Part shown: one piece after another, positions 21,079 through 33,158 of the stretch
Layout: every line of letters begins with the position of its first letter
Position numbering within the stretch: position 1 is the first letter of the stretch
From: Pelagibacteraceae bacterium AG-325-C10
GTDB lineage: Bacteria > Pseudomonadota > Alphaproteobacteria > Pelagibacterales > Pelagibacteraceae
NCBI GenBank assembly: GCA_003282975.1
Contig: QBYD01000010.1
Span: 1 to 45,739 of the forward strand
Length of the DNA stretch: 45,739 bases
Reading direction: 5' to 3'
Notes under the pieces: generated by a model
The model's input: the letters and a program-made list of their open reading frames with translations, nothing else
The model's database searches: none
Told to the model about the DNA's origin: nothing
Translations under genes and position numbers: made by a program

Positions 21079-22398
21079 TTAAATATCCAAAAATAACCTT
21101 CTAGGGTCCTCTAAATTTTCTTTTACCATTTTTAAAAATGAAACTGACTCTTTGCCATCAATTATTCTGTGATCATATGACAAAGCCAAATACATAATTG
21201 GTCTAATTTTAATTTCACCATCAATGACCATGGGTCTATCAACAATATTATGCATTCCAAGTACACCTGATTGAGGGAGATTTAATATTGGAGTTGATAA
21301 CATAGATCCATAAATTCCACCATTACTAATAGTAAATGTTCCGCCCTGAAGATCTTCAATTGTTAATTTACCATCTCTTGCTTTTTCTGAAATATCTTTA
21401 ATATTTTTTTCAATATCAGCAAACGATAGCTCATCTGCATTTCTTAATACAGGCACAACTAAACCCTTTTCTGTTCCAACCGCAAAACTAAGATTATAAT
21501 AATTTTTGTAAACTATTTCCTCTCCATCTATTTCGGCATTTACTGCTGGGAAGTTTTTTAATGCTACAACACATGCTTTTACAAAAAATGACATGAGTCC
21601 TAATTTTATTCCATATCGACTTTGAAAATCTTGTTGGTTCTCTTTTCTCATTTCCATGATGTTAGTCATATCAACTTCATTGAATGTAGTTAGCAAAGCT
21701 GCATTTTCTTGAGCTTGTTTTAATCTTTTAGCTATTGTTTGTCTTAGTCTGGTCATTTTAATTCTTTCCTCTTGACCATATTTAATTTTTCTATCTGAAG
21801 GCTGCGGATTAGCTCCCATTAAACTTATTAGATCACCTTTTAAAACTCTTCCATCTTTTCCTGAGCCTTGAACTGAATTAATGTCTATTTTGTTTTCTGC
21901 AACAATCTTTCTAACTGCTGGCGAAAGTGTTTGGATTTCTGTATTAGTTTTAGGTTCTGATTTTTCTATTTTACCCTTTGGAACATCTTCTTCTGTAATT
22001 TCTTCAGTTAAGATTAAAGGTTCATCCTGTATATTTTGTGTCTTTTTTTTTTCAAATATTTTTGGCTCTTTTTTAGATGGATCTAATTTAATTACGTTGT
22101 CTTCTGTTTGAGCAGGTTCTATTTTTTTAATTTCCTCTTTTTTATCTGATCCTACTGATCCACTTTCTGATACTGAACCTAAGTGAGCTCCAACTTCAAC
22201 CACTGAACCATCTTTTGAATTTATTTCTGTTAAAATACCTTTTACAGGTGATGGAACTTCAAGATTAACTTTATCTGTTTCAAGCTCTACTATTGGCTCA
22301 TCTGCTTCAACAGCATCACCAGTATTTTTAAGCCATTTTGCTACTGTTGCCTCAGTAATACTTTCTCCGAGAACAGGAACTAAGATTTTTTCACTCAT
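21079..22398 (-). CDS. sucB: Dihydrolipoamide succinyltransferase (E2 of 2-oxoglutarate dehydrogenase)
   Basis: 439 residues: a lipoyl domain with Lys43 in ETDKVNLEV, a long acidic and lysine-rich linker (about 85-155), an E3-binding domain (about 158-193), and the catalytic domain ending with His410 and Asp414 in [10 protein letters not shown]. It moves the succinyl group to CoA. It follows sucA by six bases. Confidence 0.97.
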
Positions 22399-22404
22399 TT
22401 ATAA

Positions 22405-25314
22405 TTATTCAAATACCTTATCAATTATTTCTTGTTGTTGAGAATTATGCCTCTTCGCATATCCAGTCGCTGGGGATGCATCAGGGCTTCTTCCTATATA
22501 AGAAATTTGATTATTTTTAGCCTTAATAGTGTCTAATGTCCATTGGATATAATCCCTTGCTGAGAACCATGCACCCATATTTTTAGGCTCTTCTTGGCAC
22601 CAAAAAAATTCAGCATTCCCTGCAAATGGTTTTAACTCTTTAACAAGTGTTTTTGCGGGAAATGGGTAAAGTTGTTCTATTCTAAACAAAATTACATCAT
22701 CTTTTTTTAATTTTTCTCTAGCATCTAACAAATCGAAATAAACTTTTCCAGAACACATAATCACTTTTTTGATTTCAGAACTTTTTTTTAATTTTATAAA
22801 TCCTTGAGCTTGTGGATCTATTGCATGATCCCAAAGTATTCTGTGAAAAGTATTTGATTTGCTTAAATCTTCTAAATTTGAAACGCAATATTTGTTTCTA
22901 AGTAATGATTTTGGAGCCATCATAATTAAAGGTTTTCTAAAATCTCTATGCATTTGTCTTCTTAGAGCATGAAAATAATTTGCGGGAGTTGTACAATTCA
23001 TCACTTGCATATTATCGTTTGAGCACAATTGTAAAAATCTCTCTAATCGAGCTGATGAATGTTCTGGTCCTTGACCTTCATATCCATGTGGCAATAACAG
23101 TACTAATCCAGAAGCTCTTCTCCATTTTCTTTCTCCTGAAGCAATAAATTGATCTATCACAACTTGAGCACCATTTGCAAAATCTCCAAACTGTGCTTCC
23201 CATAAAGTAAGTGTGTTAGGTTCAACTAAACTATAACCATACTCAAACCCTAGAACAGCCAATTCAGATAAAAAGCTATCAACAACTTCAAATTGTTTTT
23301 GATTGTTAGAAATATTATTTAAAGGGACATATCGAGTGTTATCCTTTTGATTTCTTAAAACTGAATGTCTTTGACTGAAAGTTCCTCTTCCAGAATCTTG
23401 TCCAACTAATCTTACTGGATAGCCTTCTTCTAATAGAGATCCAAACGCTAAAGCTTCAGCTGTTGACCAATCAATATTAGATCCACTTTTAACAGCTTCT
23501 TTTCTATTATTTAATATTTTGACTATAGTTTTGTGTAAATTTAAATCGTCAGAAGATGCATTTATTTTTTCTGAAATCTCTAATAACTTTTTGGTATCTG
23601 CGCCAGTTACACCTCTTTTATCTTTTCCTTTTTCTGGTTTGTAAGCTGACCATGTACCTTCAAACCAAGCAATTTTTGGTTTGTAATCTTTTGCATTTTT
23701 AAACTGATCATCAAGTAAGTTTTTAAAAGTCTTAATGGAATTATCTAAACTTTCATTTGAGATAACATTTTCATCTACGAGTTTTTTTCCATAAACTTTA
23801 GTTGTTGAGGGGTGTGATCTAATTTTTTCATACATCAAAGGCTGGGTAAACGATGGTTCGTCTCCTTCGTTGTGACCAAACCTTCTGTAACAAATTAGAT
23901 CAACAACTACATCCCTATTAAATTTTAATCTAAACTCTGCTGCTATTCTAGCCGCATAAACAACTGCTTCTGGATCATCTCCATTTGCATGAATTATTGG
24001 AGCATCAACCATTTTTGCTATATCAGAGGGATATGGAGAGGACCTAGCAAATCTTGGGCTGGTAGTAAATCCTATCTGATTATTGACTATTATGTGAATT
24101 GTACCACCGGTGTTATGTCCTGGTAGTCCAGACATCGCAAAACATTCAGCCACAACACCTTGACCAGCAAACGCTGCATCACCGTGAATTAAAATTGGTA
24201 TTACCTTATTTCTCTTTTTATCTTTATGAAAATATTGTTTTGCTCTAGTTTGACCAAGCACAACTGGATTAACTGCTTCTAAATGTGATGGGTTGTCAGT
24301 TAAACTTACATGAACTGAATTTCCATCAAACTCTCTATTAGATGAGGCACCTAAATGATACTTAACGTCTCCCGCCCCCTCGTCTGAAGAAGTTCCAAAC
24401 TCACCAGCAAACTCATTAAATATTCTTTTGTAAGACTTTTGTAATACGTTAGCTAAAACATTTAATCTTCCTCTGTGAGACATACCAATCTTAACTTCTT
24501 TAACTTGAGACTGACCACTAATTTTAATTATTTGTTCTAAAGCAGGTATTAGACTTTCTCCTCCATCCAATCCAAACCTTTTAGTTCCAACATATTTTGT
24601 GTGAAGAAATTTTTCAAAACCTTCTGCTTGAATTAATTTATTTAAAATAGCTTCTTTACCATTTTTAGTAAAATTTAAATTATCATCTGATTTTTCAATT
24701 CTATCTCTAAACCATTTTCTCTCTGTTGGGTTAGATATGTGCATATATTCGTAACCAACCGGTCCACAATAAGTTTTTTTTAAAAAGGCTAGTAGTTCTT
24801 TAATGTTTGAGTTTTGTCTATTAGTTACTCCACCTAAATAAATATTTTTTTGATAATCTGTTTTTTTGAAACCAAAAGACTCAGGATGAAGCTCATCTAA
24901 ATAGTCTGATTTCATCAATTCAAGCGGATCTAGTTTGGCTATAAGATGTCCACGTTGTCTGTATGATCTAATCATTGAAACTGCTTTTATGGAGTCTTCA
25001 TTAGATTTTGAAGAACTTGAACTTACACCATTATTATTTGCAGTAATACCGTTAGAATTTTGTTCTTCTTGGTCAATTTTTTTTTGAAGTTCGTCAATAT
25101 CTATCGTATTTTTTTTAGGACCCCATGAAGGACCATTAATTTCTTTTGCAATAATATTTAATTCATCACCAATACCTTCAAAATAATCTTTCCAACTATC
25201 TGGTAAATCTGCATCCTTGTTTACAAATTTAAGATACATTTGCTCAATAAATGCACTATTAGTTTTGTTTAAAAATGAGGTTTTTTCGTAATCAAGATTT
25301 TTTGATGCTGACAT
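22405..25314 (-). CDS. sucA: 2-Oxoglutarate dehydrogenase E1
   Basis: 969 residues, the usual length of SucA. The thiamine diphosphate region (GDAAFAGQGVV, then NNQIGFTTSP) and the C-terminal E1 domain (HGYEGQGPEHSSARLERFLQ, shown here in part as GYEGQGPEHSSARLER) are present. It decarboxylates 2-oxoglutarate in the TCA cycle. It lies 34 bases from sucD, one of the wider gaps in this run. Confidence 0.98.
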   Translation of the reverse strand: MSASKNLDYEKTSFLNKTNSAFIEQMYLKFVNKDADLPDSWKDYFEGIGDELNIIAKEINGPSWGPKKNTIDIDELQKKIDQEEQNSNGITANNNGVSSSSSKSNEDSIKAVSMIRSYRQRGHLIAKLDPLELMKSDYLDELHPESFGFKKTDYQKNIYLGGVTNRQNSNIKELLAFLKKTYCGPVGYEYMHISNPTERKWFRDRIEKSDDNLNFTKNGKEAILNKLIQAEGFEKFLHTKYVGTKRFGLDGGESLIPALEQIIKISGQSQVKEVKIGMSHRGRLNVLANVLQKSYKRIFNEFAGEFGTSSDEGAGDVKYHLGASSNREFDGNSVHVSLTDNPSHLEAVNPVVLGQTRAKQYFHKDKKRNKVIPILIHGDAAFAGQGVVAECFAMSGLPGHNTGGTIHIIVNNQIGFTTSPRFARSSPYPSDIAKMVDAPIIHANGDDPEAVVYAARIAAEFRLKFNRDVVVDLICYRRFGHNEGDEPSFTQPLMYEKIRSHPSTTKVYGKKLVDENVISNESLDNSIKTFKNLLDDQFKNAKDYKPKIAWFEGTWSAYKPEKGKDKRGVTGADTKKLLEISEKINASSDDLNLHKTIVKILNNRKEAVKSGSNIDWSTAEALAFGSLLEEGYPVRLVGQDSGRGTFSQRHSVLRNQKDNTRYVPLNNISNNQKQFEVVDSFLSELAVLGFEYGYSLVEPNTLTLWEAQFGDFANGAQVVIDQFIASGERKWRRASGLVLLLPHGYEGQGPEHSSARLERFLQLCSNDNMQVMNCTTPANYFHALRRQMHRDFRKPLIMMAPKSLLRNKYCVSNLEDLSKSNTFHRILWDHAIDPQAQGFIKLKKSSEIKKVIMCSGKVYFDLLDAREKLKKDDVILFRIEQLYPFPAKTLVKELKPFAGNAEFFWCQEEPKNMGAWFSARDYIQWTLDTIKAKNNQISYIGRSPDASPATGYAKRHNSQQQEIIDKVFE

Positions 25315-25348
25315 CTATTTATTTAATATAGTCCTCTAATATTATTTT

Positions 25349-26224
25349 TCAATTCGACAATTTATTAAATAAAGTTTTTCCAATTATTGAAGGCGATTTT
25401 GCAACTGTTATGCCAGATTCCTCCATTTTTTTAATTTTATCTTCAGCTCCACCCTTTCCCCCTGAAATAATAGCACCTGCATGACCCATTCTTCTTCCTG
25501 GAGGAGCTGTAATTCCTGCAATAAAACCAACTATCGGTTTTTTAATTTTATGATTTTTAACAAATTCAGCCGCTTCTTCTTCTGCTGTACCTCCAATTTC
25601 TCCTATCATTAAAATAGACTCAGTCTCTTCATCATTTAAAAACAAGTCTAAACAATCAATAAAGTTTGTTCCATTTATTGGATCGCCTCCAATACCAATA
25701 CAAGTTGATTGACCTAAGCCATTCTCAGTTGTTTGCGCAACTGCCTCGTAAGTAAGTGTTCCAGATCTTGATACGATTCCAACTGTTCCTCTTTTGTGAA
25801 TATTTCCTGGCATAATTCCAATTTTACATTCGGCTGGAGTAATTATTCCTGGGCAATTTGGTCCAATCAATCTACTTTGAGTACCATTTAATTTTTGTCT
25901 TACCTTAAGCATATCCTGAACTGGGATACCTTCGGTAATACAAACAATTAATTCTATTGATGCATCAATTGCTTCAATAATTGCAGCTGCAGCAAATTTA
26001 GCAGGTACATAAATCATTGTTGCATCTGCCCCAACACTATCTTTTGCTTCGATAACACTATTAAAAACAGGTCTATCTAAGTGTTTTTGACCACCTTTTT
26101 TTGGAGTCACCCCACCAACTAAATTAGTTCCATATTTAATTGCTTGTTCAGAGTGAAAGGTGCCATGTGCACCTGTAAAGCCTTGACAGATTACTTTTGT
26201 ATCCTTGTTTACTAAAACAGACAT
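25349..26224 (-). CDS. sucD: Succinyl-CoA synthetase alpha subunit
   Basis: 291 residues. The CoA-binding N-terminus ([13 protein letters not shown]) and the phosphorylated His248 in [10 protein letters not shown] are visible. It makes ATP or GTP from succinyl-CoA together with SucC. One base separates it from sucC. Confidence 0.98.
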
Positions 26225-26225
26225 T

Positions 26226-27386
26226 TTATTTAATTGCCTCTACAATTTTTTTTGCTGCATCATCTAAGTTTTCAGCTGAAATTAACTTTAATCCTGAGTT
26301 ATCTAATATTTCTTTTCCTTCTTTGAAATTTGTCCCAGCAAGTCTCACAACTAATGGAACACTAATATTTATTTCTTTAGCCGCATCTACCACTCCTTGA
26401 GCAAGTACATCACATCTCATTATCCCTCCAAAAATATTAATTAAAATTCCTTTAACATTTTTGTCTGATAGAATTATCTTCAAGGCAGCTGAAACTTTTT
26501 CTTTTGATGCACCACCGCCAACATCTAAAAAATTAGCTGGCTCTTTTCCATATAGTTTTATTATGTCCATAGTTGCCATAGCTAAACCTGCCCCATTAAC
26601 CATACAACCAATACTTCCATCCAATTTTATGTAAGCTAGATCGTTTTTACTGGCTTCTATTTCTGTTGGATCTTCTTCATTTAAATCTCTTAACTCAACA
26701 ATCTCAGGATGTCTAAATAAAGCATTTGAATCAAAGTTTACTTTTGCATCTAAACAAATTACTTTTTCTTCCTTAGTTAAGATTAATGGATTAACCTCAA
26801 CCATATTTGCATCTGTGCTAATAAACATTTGATAAATTGATTTTATTAGCGAAATTGCTTGTGTTTTTGTACTGTCATTTAAGTTAAAAATATTAATTAT
26901 CTTCTCACAATCTTTGTCTGAAATTTCATTGCCAATATCAACTTTAGTTGTTATGATTTTCTCAGGTGAGTTACTTGCTACTTCTTCAATATCCATTCCA
27001 CCCTGGTCACTAGATATGAAAGCTATTTTAGAACTAGCTCTATCGACTAAACAAGACAAATAAAACTCTTTATCAATATTTGATGACTCTTCGACATATA
27101 GTCTTTTTACTTCTCTTCCTTCAGGACCTGTTTGATGAGTAACTAGGATTTTTCCCATCATCTCTTTTGCTGCCTCACTTAAATCTTCAATAGTATCTAA
27201 TATTTTTACTCCCCCTGCTTTTCCTCTTCCGCCAGCATGGATTTGAGCTTTTAAAACATATTTTTTTGTATTTAGTGATTTTGCTTTTTCAACAAGATCT
27301 TCAACTGTAAGACCAAATACTCCCTCTGGTACAACTGCCCCATATTTTTTTAAGATTTGTTTTGCTTGATGCTCGTGTATGTTCAT
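26226..27386 (-). CDS. sucC: Succinyl-CoA synthetase beta subunit
   Basis: 386 residues with an ATP-grasp domain ([16 protein letters not shown] start, GGRGKAGGV) and the C-terminal [10 protein letters not shown] motif. It binds the nucleotide in the SucCD heterodimer. Two bases separate it from mdh. Confidence 0.98.
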
Positions 27387-27388
27387 TA

Positions 27389-29853
<2,465 letters not shown>

Positions 29854-29892
29854 GAATACGGTCTTTTAAATCAAAAATTCTTGTTAGTCTAA

Positions 29893-30672
29893 TTAAACAT
29901 TGGCTACAGCAATCATTTTTTTAATTTCTGCAATTGCTTTTGCTGGATTTAAGCCTTTTGGACAAGCACTTGTACAGTTGAGGATAGTATGACATCTATA
30001 AAGTTTTAATTCATCAGCAACCTTCTTTAATCTAGCTTTTCTTTCCTCATCTCTACTATCAATAATCCACCTATATGCTTGAAGTAAAACTGCAGGACCT
30101 AAATATTTATCTCCATTCCACCAATAACTTGGGCAAGATGTTGAGCAGCACGCGCACATTATACATTCATATGCACCATCAAGTTTTGCTCTTTCTTCTT
30201 TTGATTGAAAAATTTCATTTGTATCTTTTGTTGAATTATTTTTTAACCAAGGCTCAATTGACTGATATTGTTTATAAAGACCATCAAGATCTCCTATTAA
30301 ATCTCTTTTTACTTTTAAATGCGGTAAAGGATAAATATCTATATCACCATCTATTTCAGCATGCGGTGTAGTACAAGCGAGACCATTTTTACCACCCATA
30401 TTCATTGCACAAGATCCACAAACTCCATGTGCACAAGATCTTCTATATGCTAATGTTGGATCAATTTCATTTTTAATTTTGTTAAGAATATCTAAAACTT
30501 TTGAAGGGCAATTATCCATATCTACTTCATAGGTATCTAGCCTAGGGTTTTCTTCTGTAGAAGGATCCCACCTATAAACGTTAACTTTTCTAATATTTTT
30601 TGAACCTGTTTTGTCTTGATAATATTTACCTTTAATTACTTCAGAATTTTTAGGTAAATTTATTTGAACCAT
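29893..30672 (-). CDS. sdhB: Succinate dehydrogenase iron-sulfur subunit
   Basis: 259 residues. [2Fe-2S] ligands Cys80, Cys85, Cys88 and Cys100 ([10 protein letters not shown]); [4Fe-4S] and [3Fe-4S] ligands begin at Cys170 ([17 protein letters not shown]) and continue in [14 protein letters not shown]. All the usual cysteines and the quinone-site Trp are kept. It passes electrons from SdhA to quinone at the membrane. Its ATG overlaps the sdhA stop by one base. Confidence 0.97.
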
Positions 30673-32447
30673 TAATACACTCTTTCTTGTGGTGGAAAGT
30701 ATTGTACTTCATTAGTTAAAGTAGATTTGTGAACTTCTCTATAACTTATTTTTGTATTCTTACCATTACACCAAGCTAGTGTATGTTGCATAAATTTTTC
30801 ATCATCTCTTTTAGGATAGTCATCTCTTGCATGGGCTCCCCTACTTTCTTTTCTGTGGTAGGCAGAGTCAACTGTAGCTACCGCTTGTCTAATCAAATTA
30901 TCAAACTCTAAAGTTTCTACTAAATCAGTATTAAATACTAAAGATCTATCTTTAACTGAGATAGAATCCATGCCATCATAAGTTTTTCTAATTTCATCAA
31001 CACCTTCTTTAAGATTTTTTTCAGTTCTAAACACTGCACATTTTGATTGCATAGTTTTTTGCATAGCAAGTCTTAAATCTGCTGTACTATTTTCACCTTT
31101 TGCATTTCTAAGTTTATCAAACCTATCCAAACATTTTTGAGTTTCAGACTCTCCAATTTCTTCATGAGGAGTTCCTGGTTTAACTAATTCAGCTGCTCTT
31201 TTTGCTGCTGCTCTTCCAAATACAACTAAATCAATTAAAGAATTAGATCCTAATCTATTGGCTCCATGAACTGAAACACACGCAGCTTCTCCAATTGCCA
31301 TCAATCCAGGAACGGTTTTTTCAGAGCCATTCACTGTCATTACCTCTCCTTTATAATTAGTTGGAATACCACCCATATTGTAGTGAACAGTTGGAACTAC
31401 AGGAATTGGTTCTTTGGTAACATCTACATTTGCAAATAATCTTGCAGCATCTGTAATTCCTGGCAATCTGCTTTCAATAATTTCTTTATCTAAATGACTT
31501 AAGTTCAAATGAACATGATCTTGATCTTTACCAACTCCTCTTCCTTCGTTAATTTCAATTGACATTGACCTACTTACTACATCTCTTGATGCTAGATCTT
31601 TTGCACTTGGGGCATATCTTTCCATGAATCTCTCACCTTTTGAATTTGTAAGGTAACCTCCTTCACCTCTAGCCCCTTCTGTAATTAAAGTACCATGACC
31701 ATATATTCCTGTTGGATGAAATTGTACAAATTCCATATCTTGTAATGGAAGTCCAGCTCTTAAAACCATTGCATTACCATCGCCTGTACACGTATGTGCA
31801 GAAGTTGCTGAATAATAAACTTTTCCATACCCACCAGTAGCAATAATTACTGTGTGCGCCCTAAATCTGTGAATTGTGCCATCATTTAAATTCCAGGCGA
31901 TTAATCCTTTGCACTCGCCATCTTTCATTAATAAATCAAGTGCAAAATATTCTATAAAAAATTCTGTATTATGTTTCAAAGCTTGACCATAAAGAGTATG
32001 AAGAATTGCATGACCAGTTCTATCAGCTGCAGCACAAGTTCTTTGAACTATCCCATTACCATAATTTTTTGTCATTCCTCCAAAAGGTCTTTGATAAATC
32101 TTTCCTTCTTCTGTTCGACTAAAAGGAACACCATATTTTTCTAATTCAATTACTGCTTTGGGTGCCTCTTTACATAAATATTCGATACTATCTTGGTCGC
32201 CTAACCAATCTGCACCTTTAACAGTATCATACATGTGCCATCGCCAATCATCTTCTCCCATGTTTCCAAGAGCAGCTGAAATACCTCCTTGAGCTGCAGA
32301 TGTGTGACTTCTTGTTGGAAAAACTTTTGAAATACATGCTGTTTTTAATCCAGCTTCGCTTAGCCCAACAGCAGCTCTTAGGCCTGATCCACCAGCACCT
32401 AACACTACTACATCGTATTCGTGATCTATTATTTTGTAAGAACTCAT
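30672..32447 (-). CDS. sdhA: Succinate dehydrogenase flavoprotein subunit
   Basis: 591 residues. FAD-binding [10 protein letters not shown] (17-26), the FAD-linking His48 in SHTSAAQGG, and the late [11 protein letters not shown] motif are clear. It oxidises succinate to fumarate. It overlaps both sdhD and sdhB by one base. Confidence 0.98.
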
Positions 32448-32773
32448 TAGTTAAGATTAAGTAATAATATAATTGTTAATAATGGTATAACTATAGCAGA
32501 TAAAAATAATAGTCTGTTTGCGACATTTTTGATTTTATCGTTTCCAATATAGTCTTCAAAAACCTCACTTATAGTTAGTGCTGAGAAAATATATGCAAAA
32601 ACTATGAATAAACTAAATAAAAACTTAGAAGTTAAATTTGTAAAAAATTTTAAAACCTCAGAATAACTTTGATCATAAATTGCAATAAAATTAACAATAA
32701 ACCAAATCATTAAGGGTAATAAAATTAATGATGAGATTTTCATAAAAACCCACTTTTTAGTAGCTAAATTCAT
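32447..32773 (-). CDS. sdhD: Succinate dehydrogenase membrane anchor, no heme histidine
   Basis: 108 residues with about three membrane segments (roughly 13-33, 50-70 and 86-106). Position between sdhC and sdhA and the retained EDY (73-75, matching E. coli Asp82-Tyr83) identify it. The residue matching the E. coli heme ligand His71, eleven before that Asp, is Phe63, and the protein contains no histidine at all. Sequence divergence is high, so the call relies partly on context. Confidence 0.85.
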
Positions 32774-32774
32774 G

Positions 32775-33158
32775 TTAAATAAAATTCCTACCTATAAAAT
32801 AAATCAAAATAGTCAAAACAACAGAGCCAAGAATAACTACTAACCCAGTGATACGAGTTGTTTGTAATTCAAATCCATAACCCATATCTAAAGCTAGATG
32901 TCTTATTTCACTTAATATTTGAAAACTAAATGACCACAATAAACCAATTGCAATAAACTTTCCCACAAATGAGTTAAGGAATAAATTTATGATATCATAA
33001 TTAACTTCTCCTAAAACTAAAAATGATACCCACGCACATATAAATGTAATTGCAAGAATATTTATAATTCCTGTTATTCTATGTGAAATAGAAACTAATG
33101 ATGAAATATGCCATCTATAAATTTGGATATGTGGAGTTAGAGGATTTTTATTTTCCAT
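32775..33158 (-). CDS. sdhC: Succinate dehydrogenase cytochrome b subunit, heme ligand replaced
   Basis: 127 residues, three membrane segments (about 30-50, 66-84, 104-124). The SISHRITG motif (23-30, quinone-site Ser and Arg) and EIRHLALDMG (84-93) mark the SdhC family. The residue seven before the RH histidine, His84 in E. coli and the heme b ligand, is Gln80 here. The start overlaps the end of asd by 11 bases. Confidence 0.93.
   Translation of the reverse strand: MENKNPLTPHIQIYRWHISSLVSISHRITGIINILAITFICAWVSFLVLGEVNYDIINLFLNSFVGKFIAIGLLWSFSFQILSEIRHLALDMGYGFELQTTRITGLVVILGSVVLTILIYFIGRNFI

What the first reader, a model, noticed from the sequence alone, without database searches (positions are those of the whole stretch)
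32447..33158. Succinate dehydrogenase without either heme b axial histidine
Aligning by the fixed motifs, E. coli SdhC His84 (seven before the RH histidine) is Gln80 here, and E. coli SdhD His71 (eleven before Asp-Tyr) is Phe63. SdhD contains no histidine at all. Loss of both partners at once is what one expects if heme b has been dropped, rather than a random change in one subunit. SdhA and SdhB keep their FAD and iron-sulfur ligands, and the quinone-site Ser/Arg in SdhC and Asp-Tyr in SdhD remain, so the enzyme should still reduce quinone. A heme-free complex II would save iron and heme in an organism adapted to iron-poor ocean water.
Basis: partly seen in the sequence, partly recalled or inferred. 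Interest (0 to 1): 0.75.

Follow-up and report, generated by a model that had tools for sequence, protein, structure and literature searches.

The report
SAR11 complex II lacking heme
The respiratory enzyme succinate dehydrogenase of the ocean bacterium Pelagibacter (SAR11) has lost both amino acids that hold its heme, and the pocket around them changed in step, so it very probably works without heme, as the yeast enzyme does.

Summary
SdhC (32775-33158, minus) has Gln80 at E. coli heme ligand His84; SdhD (32447-32773, minus) has Phe63 at His71 and no histidine at all. Sequence and structure alignments agree. It is no error: in the window's genus plus 80 close named loci, 157 of 158 distinct sdhC have Gln, and 156 of 156 SdhD read have Phe or Tyr.

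"Both at once" is wrong. Four other genera of the family keep His/His; one (16 of 16) has His/Phe; one is mixed. With one odd genome set aside, the SdhD His was lost once and the SdhC His later, twice.

New here: the glycine four residues after each ligand changes with it. Of 101 families, all 8 with ligand loss changed such a glycine, against 4 of 93 without. SAR11 gained Glu on SdhC; heme-free yeast complex II has the mirror change on Sdh4, standing in for a heme propionate (PMC13066397, passages). Five other alphaproteobacterial families with ligand loss carry the yeast-side Glu.

Best reading: a working heme-free type C complex II. Heme absence is inferred, not measured; iron saving is unproven (about 1 of 10 Fe).

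The parts
32775..33158 (-). sdhC, cytochrome b556-type membrane subunit; Gln80 replaces heme ligand His84, Glu84 replaces Gly88 (E. coli numbers); Ser23, His26, Arg27 kept
32447..32773 (-). sdhD, membrane anchor; Phe63 replaces heme ligand His71, Thr67 replaces Gly75, Lys12 replaces Arg20; Asp74-Tyr75 kept; no His in the protein
32919..32921 (-). codon CAA, SdhC Gln80 at the lost axial ligand position
   Evidence: Gln in 157 of 158 distinct sdhC of the genus set
32907..32909 (-). codon GAA, SdhC Glu84 in place of the ligand+4 glycine; proposed stand-in for a heme propionate
   Evidence: Glu in 158 of 158 distinct sdhC of the genus set
32585..32587 (-). codon TTC, SdhD Phe63 at the lost axial ligand position
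   Evidence: Phe or Tyr in 156 of 156 distinct loci of the genus set with SdhD read
32573..32575 (-). codon ACT, SdhD Thr67 in place of the ligand+4 glycine
32738..32740 (-). codon AAA, SdhD Lys12 at the E. coli Arg20 position
30672..32447 (-). sdhA, flavoprotein, intact (TIGR01816 8e-290)
29893..30672 (-). sdhB, iron-sulfur subunit, cysteine motifs present

Best explanation
This is an active succinate:ubiquinone reductase of the type C architecture that no longer binds heme b. Electrons go FAD, three Fe-S clusters, ubiquinone, as in other complexes II; the heme lies off that direct path. Where the heme once cross-linked SdhC and SdhD, the protein now holds itself together: Phe/Tyr in place of SdhD His71, larger residues in place of the two glycines four after the ligands, and a new carboxylate, Glu at SdhC 88 (window Glu84), which probably pairs with a basic residue on the first helix of SdhD (Lys at 20, window Lys12) where a heme propionate used to sit. 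This would be the mirror image, across the pseudo-twofold axis of SdhC/SdhD, of the Glu112(Sdh4)-Arg97(Sdh3) bridge in heme-free yeast complex II. Loss went in steps: first SdhD His71 together with SdhC Gly88-to-Glu, at the base of the lineage that includes Pelagibacter; then SdhC His84-to-Gln, twice. Shown: residues, distribution, covariation, order on the tree. Inferred: absence of heme, the Glu-Lys bridge, full activity.
For: Ligand columns confirmed by sequence and structure alignment. Genus set: Gln84 157 of 158, Glu88 158 of 158, SdhD71 Phe/Tyr 156 of 156. No SdhD column is His or Cys in 30% or more of 180 rows. Gly88 is kept in 95 of 97 class rows and 19 of 19 SAR11 rows with both ligands, and is Glu in 12 of 12 His/Phe and 132 of 132 Gln84 rows; Gly75 is kept in 93 of 97 and 18 of 19, and in 0 of 12 and 0 of 130. 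By family: glycine changed in 8 of 8 with ligand loss against 4 of 93 without, Fisher p 2.4e-9; acidic residue 7 of 8 against 2 of 93. On the SdhA tree, His71 loss and Gly88-to-Glu need 1 change each within the family with g270 set aside (2 each with it), His84-to-Gln 2. sdhC stays under purifying selection: median dN/dS 0.157 in Gln/Phe rows, 0.251 in His/His rows. One SdhA over the forward-type cut-off in 10 of 10 genomes and one SdhC match in the five single-contig genomes of the genus among them, so no heme-bearing spare was seen. Yeast structure: no heme with one His kept, Glu112 replaces Gly and stands in for a propionate contact (PMC13066397, passages). Heme-free E. coli variant retains significant activity and supports growth on succinate (PMC3290573, passage).
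Against: No spectrum, purification or complex model exists; the SdhC-SdhD pair was not modelled and no distance was measured. Four SdhC histidines remain (10, 17, 26, 87), so a displaced heme is not strictly excluded. In family f2, 8 of 9 ligand-loss rows have no acidic residue at either glycine, and the one ligand-loss row of f54 has Val/Ala, so the carboxylate is not universal. Glycine changes also occur with both His kept: L228 Glu/Glu, L301 and L306 Arg/Glu, L234 Val/Ala, L235 and L236 Gly/Gln, g270 Gly/Ser. On starred tree branches only 3 independent pairs exist, too few for a sign test; 10 if weak branches count. The genome g270, His/His, falls inside the ligand-loss clade.
Confidence: 0.85

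Rival explanations
1. Heme is still bound, through unusual ligands (for example SdhC His26 or His87, Gln80, or water), as single-ligand mutants of E. coli can keep heme.
For: A 2001 E. [quoted passage not shown] paper not read). SdhC His26 and His87 are 99-100% conserved in the genus set.
Against: Both canonical ligands are gone, SdhD has no conserved His or Cys, the Arg at SdhD 20 is mostly Lys, and both ligand+4 glycines are replaced, in step with ligand loss. His26 and His87 match E. coli His30 and His91, also conserved in most heme-type rows, so they did not arise to compensate.
Confidence: 0.08
2. Why it happened: heme loss is an adaptation that saves iron and heme in iron-poor sea water.
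For: SAR11 responded to iron additions in one field study (PMC11069385, passages). Five of the six non-SAR11 families with ligand loss are represented by genomes of 1.1-2.0 Mb; the sixth, f54, by one of 4.8 Mb.
Against: Saves about 1 of 10 Fe in complex II; bc1 cytochrome b is kept in 10 of 10 genomes and ferrochelatase in 9 of 10; four genera of the family keep both His. Habitats of the unnamed genera could not be compared.
Confidence: 0.25
3. Why it happened: near-neutral loss. Heme b is dispensable for catalysis, so a mutation was tolerated once the anchor could be stabilised otherwise; no iron benefit is needed.
For: Heme-free E. coli and yeast enzymes work (PMC3290573, PMC13066397, passages). 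Eight of 101 sampled families show ligand loss, with different residues. The left-over SdhC ligand was then lost twice in the family.
Against: Gln84 and Glu88 are nearly fixed across the genus set, so the replacements themselves look selected.
Confidence: 0.6
4. Sequencing error, paralogue or misalignment.
For: None found.
Against: 157 of 158 distinct relatives share Gln84; a single SdhC and SdhD in the genome; alignments without gaps at these columns; relatives in the same family carry His in the same columns.
Confidence: 0.01

Closest known systems
Saccharomyces cerevisiae complex II (heme-free type C; PMC13066397, PDB 9qdl, 9qdm)
   Same: Type C fold; SdhD-side ligand replaced by an aromatic residue (Tyr108); a ligand+4 Gly replaced by Glu, in the old propionate site; active with ubiquinone (passages).
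   Different: Yeast keeps the SdhC-side His156 and has the Glu in Sdh4; SAR11 has the Glu in SdhC, and the window's genus lost the second His too. Bacterial, so most likely a separate origin (inference).
E. coli succinate dehydrogenase SdhCDAB (type C, PDB 1nek, 2wdq)
   Same: Gene order (recalled for E. coli), subunits, fold (Z 13.6 for SdhD, 13.8-14.2 for SdhC), quinone-site residues.
   Different: E. coli binds heme b by SdhC His84 and SdhD His71; both absent here.
E. coli fumarate reductase FrdABCD (type D, heme-free)
   Same: Membrane anchors of three helices each (recalled) and no heme.
   Different: Anchor sequences fall in the SdhC and SdhD families; the SdhD model matches 1kf6_D at Z 9.6 against 13.6 for E. 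coli SdhD.
Tetrahymena and Perkinsus complex II
   Same: Said to lack the membrane-domain heme b (PMC13066397 introduction, passage).
   Different: Tetrahymena has reduced SDHC/SDHD, added subunits and a noncanonical heme C in one of them (PMC10060162 figure legend); here the four-subunit plan is unchanged.

Membership tests
Type C succinate:quinone reductase | Two membrane subunits of three helices each, homologous to SdhC and SdhD | tested here: met
   TIGR02970 and TIGR02968 over cut-off; models and VIA-align to E. coli chains
Type C succinate:quinone reductase | One axial heme ligand from each membrane subunit | tested here: not met
   Gln80 and Phe63 at the ligand positions
Type C succinate:quinone reductase | One heme b bound | not testable with these tools
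   Needs spectroscopy or a structure
Type C succinate:quinone reductase | Quinone site: SdhC Ser27, Arg31, SdhD Asp82-Tyr83 (E. coli numbers) | tested here: met
   Ser23, Arg27, Asp74-Tyr75 present; invariant in the 28-row alignments A1 and A2
Heme-free subdivision of type C proposed for yeast | Loss of at least one axial ligand | tested here: met
Heme-free subdivision of type C proposed for yeast | Gly four after the SdhD-side ligand replaced by Glu (Glu112) | tested here: not met
   Thr67 here; the Glu is four after the SdhC-side ligand instead
Heme-free subdivision of type C proposed for yeast | No heme in the purified enzyme | not testable with these tools
   Needs purification
Type D (fumarate reductase FrdCD) | FrdC/FrdD anchor families | tested here: inconclusive
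   At E up to 0.01 NCBIfam listed only SdhC-type and SdhD-type models for the two anchors; FrdC/FrdD models were not tested by name

The most novel reading that the evidence does not exclude
Heme b has been lost from complex II repeatedly in Alphaproteobacteria, including the very abundant SAR11 of the ocean, by a common rule: when an axial His goes, the glycine four residues later on SdhC or SdhD is replaced, usually by Glu, whose carboxylate takes over the salt bridge of a heme propionate. SAR11 (Glu on SdhC) and yeast plus five other alphaproteobacterial families (Glu on SdhD) found the two mirror-image solutions. The rule would let heme-free complex II be called from sequence.
Probability: 0.5. 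Interest if true: 0.82.

Novelty: new variant of a known kind. Interest (0 to 1): 0.7.

Why it matters
Heme b is part of the definition of type C complex II, and its role is an open question. If one of the most numerous heterotrophs in the ocean runs its citric acid cycle on a heme-free version, with living relatives at each step of the loss (His/His, His/Phe, Gln/Phe; and Tyr/His in the sister family), the role of the heme can be tested by comparing natural enzymes rather than crippled mutants. It also offers a sequence signature that may separate heme-bearing from heme-free complex II, and bears on iron and heme budgets for SAR11.

Tried and rejected
Simultaneous loss of both ligands: rejected by genera with one His left. 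Error or paralogue: rejected. Compensating His/Cys in SdhD: no such column at 30% or more of the genus set. Decay of the anchor genes: no sign in dN/dS, though median dS is 0.87-1.36, near saturation, so values are rough. A first alignment-free check was noisy because it could pick upstream DY or other motifs; repeated with stricter motifs (180 rows of the genus set: SdhD 171 Phe, 8 Tyr, 1 unread; SdhC 173 Gln, 1 His, 6 unread). The sign test on independent tree pairs had too few supported pairs. g270 (one genome, His/His) falls inside the ligand-loss clade on the SdhA tree; holding the ligand-loss rows together without it is not rejected (AU p 0.28). Names and habitats of the genera could not be had, so the iron-habitat test was not done. 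A dimer model was not attempted; the two subunits were modelled singly and no coordinates were returned, so the Glu-Lys distance is unmeasured. The match of yeast Lys73 to SdhD position 20 is not shown by any search (the yeast Sdh4 chain was not among the profile matches).

Sampling limits: the genus set is loci coded as the window's genus plus the 80 best of 484 named relatives, whose genus codes are unknown; the two overlap, so distinct sdhC DNA was counted. The class rows are not random: 104 rows (103 genomes, G190 came twice) made of the 30 best-scoring loci, 34 from low scorers picked by hand and 40 picked down the listed ranking; one search added 11 more low scorers. Low scorers are enriched for ligand loss. 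Rows dropped before the family count: 7 loci without readable SdhD or with gaps or X (L050, L104, L131, L170, L309, L312, L316) and the repeat loci L001, L002, L016, L193; loci fetched after one search are not in it. In the order search 49 of 397 genomes had no SdhC match, 13 of them among the 151 of at least 90% completeness.

Full report
What is there. The window lies in a Pelagibacteraceae (SAR11) draft genome, 80% complete: of 484 relatives of its SdhC found in named species genomes the 80 best were kept, and all 80 bear Pelagibacteraceae, Pelagibacterales or Candidatus Pelagibacter titles. On the minus strand the order is a semialdehyde dehydrogenase gene, sdhC, sdhD, sdhA, sdhB, then an aldehyde dehydrogenase, a lactate/malate dehydrogenase, both succinyl-CoA synthetase subunits and 2-oxoglutarate dehydrogenase E1 and E2 genes. 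SdhC and SdhD hit their NCBIfam equivalogs over cut-off. The genome shows one SdhC and one SdhD.

The observation. Gln80 of SdhC aligns to the heme His of vertebrate SDHC with no gap nearby. The SdhD profile aligns without a gap to E. coli SdhD, and the SdhD model superposes on E. coli SdhD with a constant offset of 8, so Phe63 is at His71, Lys12 at Arg20 and Thr67 at Gly75. The SdhC model matches E. coli SdhC best, Z 13.8-14.2, with a large rmsd of 5.6-6.1 A, perhaps because its first 20 residues are poorly predicted.

How wide it is. In the genus set (loci of the window's genus plus the 80 named loci; 182 loci, 158 distinct sdhC), SdhC84 is Gln in 157 of 158 and His in one; SdhD71 is Phe or Tyr in 156 of 156 with SdhD read. 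Other genera of the family: g5, g6 and g267 are His/His in 14 of 14 loci (13 distinct); g268 is His/Phe in 16 of 16; g269 is His/Phe in 2 and Gln/Phe in 4 of 6; g270 is His/His in 1 of 1. In the sister family f2, g3 has SdhC His in 5 of 5 and SdhD His in 4 of 4 readable; g2 and g4 are Tyr/His in 8 of 8; g273 is Asn/His in 1 of 1. In the class sample 97 of 104 rows were His/His at first count; of the other 7, four are Tyr/His, one Phe/His, one Tyr/Val and one lacks a readable SdhD. Of 44 rows from other classes of the phylum, 43 have a readable SdhC84, all His, and 42 a readable SdhD71, all His.

Order of loss. On an SdhA tree that does not use sdhC or sdhD, the genus set is one group (support 95), with g268, g269 and g270 outside it and g5, g6, g267 further out. 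Within the family, loss of SdhD His71 and SdhC Gly88-to-Glu need one change each when the single long-branch genome g270 is set aside, two each with it; SdhC His84-to-Gln needs two either way. Supports are SH-aLRT from a quick search and many are moderate.

The pocket. A scan for columns conserved in heme-type rows and changed in Gln84 rows listed 14 SdhC and 15 SdhD columns. Besides the ligands, the sharpest and most telling are SdhC Gly88 and SdhD Gly75, both exactly four after the ligand, and SdhD Arg20; several of the others are already changed in His/His SAR11 and so mark the clade rather than heme. By family, one vote each, 8 of 8 families with ligand loss have a changed glycine and 4 of 93 without do (Fisher p 2.4e-9); an acidic residue occurs in 7 of 8 and 2 of 93. 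Families are not fully independent and the sample is enriched in low-scoring sequences, so the p-value is a guide; on well-supported tree branches there are only 3 independent pairs. Outside SAR11, six sequences in five families (f72, f118, f151, f96 twice, f53) have Tyr or Phe at SdhC84 and Glu at SdhD75; f53 also lacks the SdhD His (Val). f54 has one row with Thr84, Val88 and Ala75.

Comparison with what is known. The 2026 cryo-EM paper on yeast complex II (PMC13066397; abstract and passages seen) reports no heme, Tyr108 at the SdhD-side ligand, a direct bond to the kept His156, and Glu112 in place of a glycine forming a salt bridge with Arg97 of Sdh3 in place of a heme propionate. Residue arithmetic (108+4 = 112; 108+12 = the conserved Tyr120) puts Glu112 at E. 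coli SdhD Gly75. In SAR11 the Glu is four after the ligand on SdhC instead. The paper also reports Lys73(Sdh4)-Asp167(Sdh3); Asp167 is 11 after His156, as Asp91 is after Gln80 here, so Asp91 is a second possible partner of Lys12. The paper calls for a subdivision of type C for yeast and some protozoan enzymes; the passages I read name no natural bacterial member. Passages of PMC3290573 say the heme is off the direct electron path and that a heme-free E. coli variant retains significant activity. The listings of my searches for SAR11 or Pelagibacter with succinate dehydrogenase, for heme-free complex II, for alphaproteobacterial heme loss and for SAR11 iron and heme showed no paper on a heme-free SAR11 or other natural bacterial type C enzyme; some searches listed only part of their hits, and most subscription papers are not held, so absence from print is not shown.

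Function. Median dN/dS of sdhC and sdhD in the Gln/Phe rows is 0.157 and 0.30, not higher than in His/His rows (0.251 and 0.455); His/Phe rows give 0.216 and 0.228; sdhA is 0.03-0.05 in all three sets. Heme is still made and used elsewhere: bc1 cytochrome b in 10 of 10 genomes and a full-length ferrochelatase in 9 of 10, the exception being the window's own incomplete draft. So complex II seems to have lost heme while the cell did not.

Verdict. The simultaneity argument is wrong, and the iron argument is unproven. The covariation of the ligand+4 glycines is the strongest evidence that heme itself, not only a ligand, is gone, and suggests a general sequence rule.

Noticed in passing
L232, L233 (f96), L224 (f72), L225 (f118), L226 (f151), L237 (f53): Alphaproteobacterial families outside SAR11 with SdhC84 Tyr/Phe and SdhD75 Glu, the same Gly-to-Glu change as heme-free yeast Sdh4; L237 also lacks the SdhD His. 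Possibly further independent heme losses.
   Followed up: partly
L027, L028, L032, L190, L192, L219, L220, L239, L173 (family f2): Genera of the SAR11 sister family keep SdhD His71 but have Tyr or Asn at SdhC84 and Cys, Ser or Asp at SdhC88: a separate loss in the opposite order.
   Followed up: partly
L211 (G692, g270): His/His SdhC-SdhD in a genome whose SdhA falls inside the ligand-loss clade on a long branch; could be tree error, transfer, or a sister lineage.
   Followed up: partly
L373 (G616): The one member of the genus set with SdhC His84 kept (with Glu88 and SdhD Phe).
   Followed up: no
L228 (f122), L301 and L306 (f20): Both heme His kept but the ligand+4 residues are Glu/Glu or Arg/Glu; a test case for whether glycine change alone removes heme.
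   Followed up: no
window 21079-33158: Citric-acid-cycle genes (sdhCDAB, lactate/malate dehydrogenase, succinyl-CoA synthetase, 2-oxoglutarate dehydrogenase) run in one direction, with an aldehyde dehydrogenase gene (28360-29853) after sdhB.
   Followed up: no
G000, G012, G235, G311, G447, G448 versus G143, G376, G438, G571: A second SdhA-family hit of 529-549 aa open frame (243-277 bits), perhaps L-aspartate oxidase, is present in the four genomes of genera g5, g6, g267 and not found in the six genomes of the window's genus searched.
   Followed up: no
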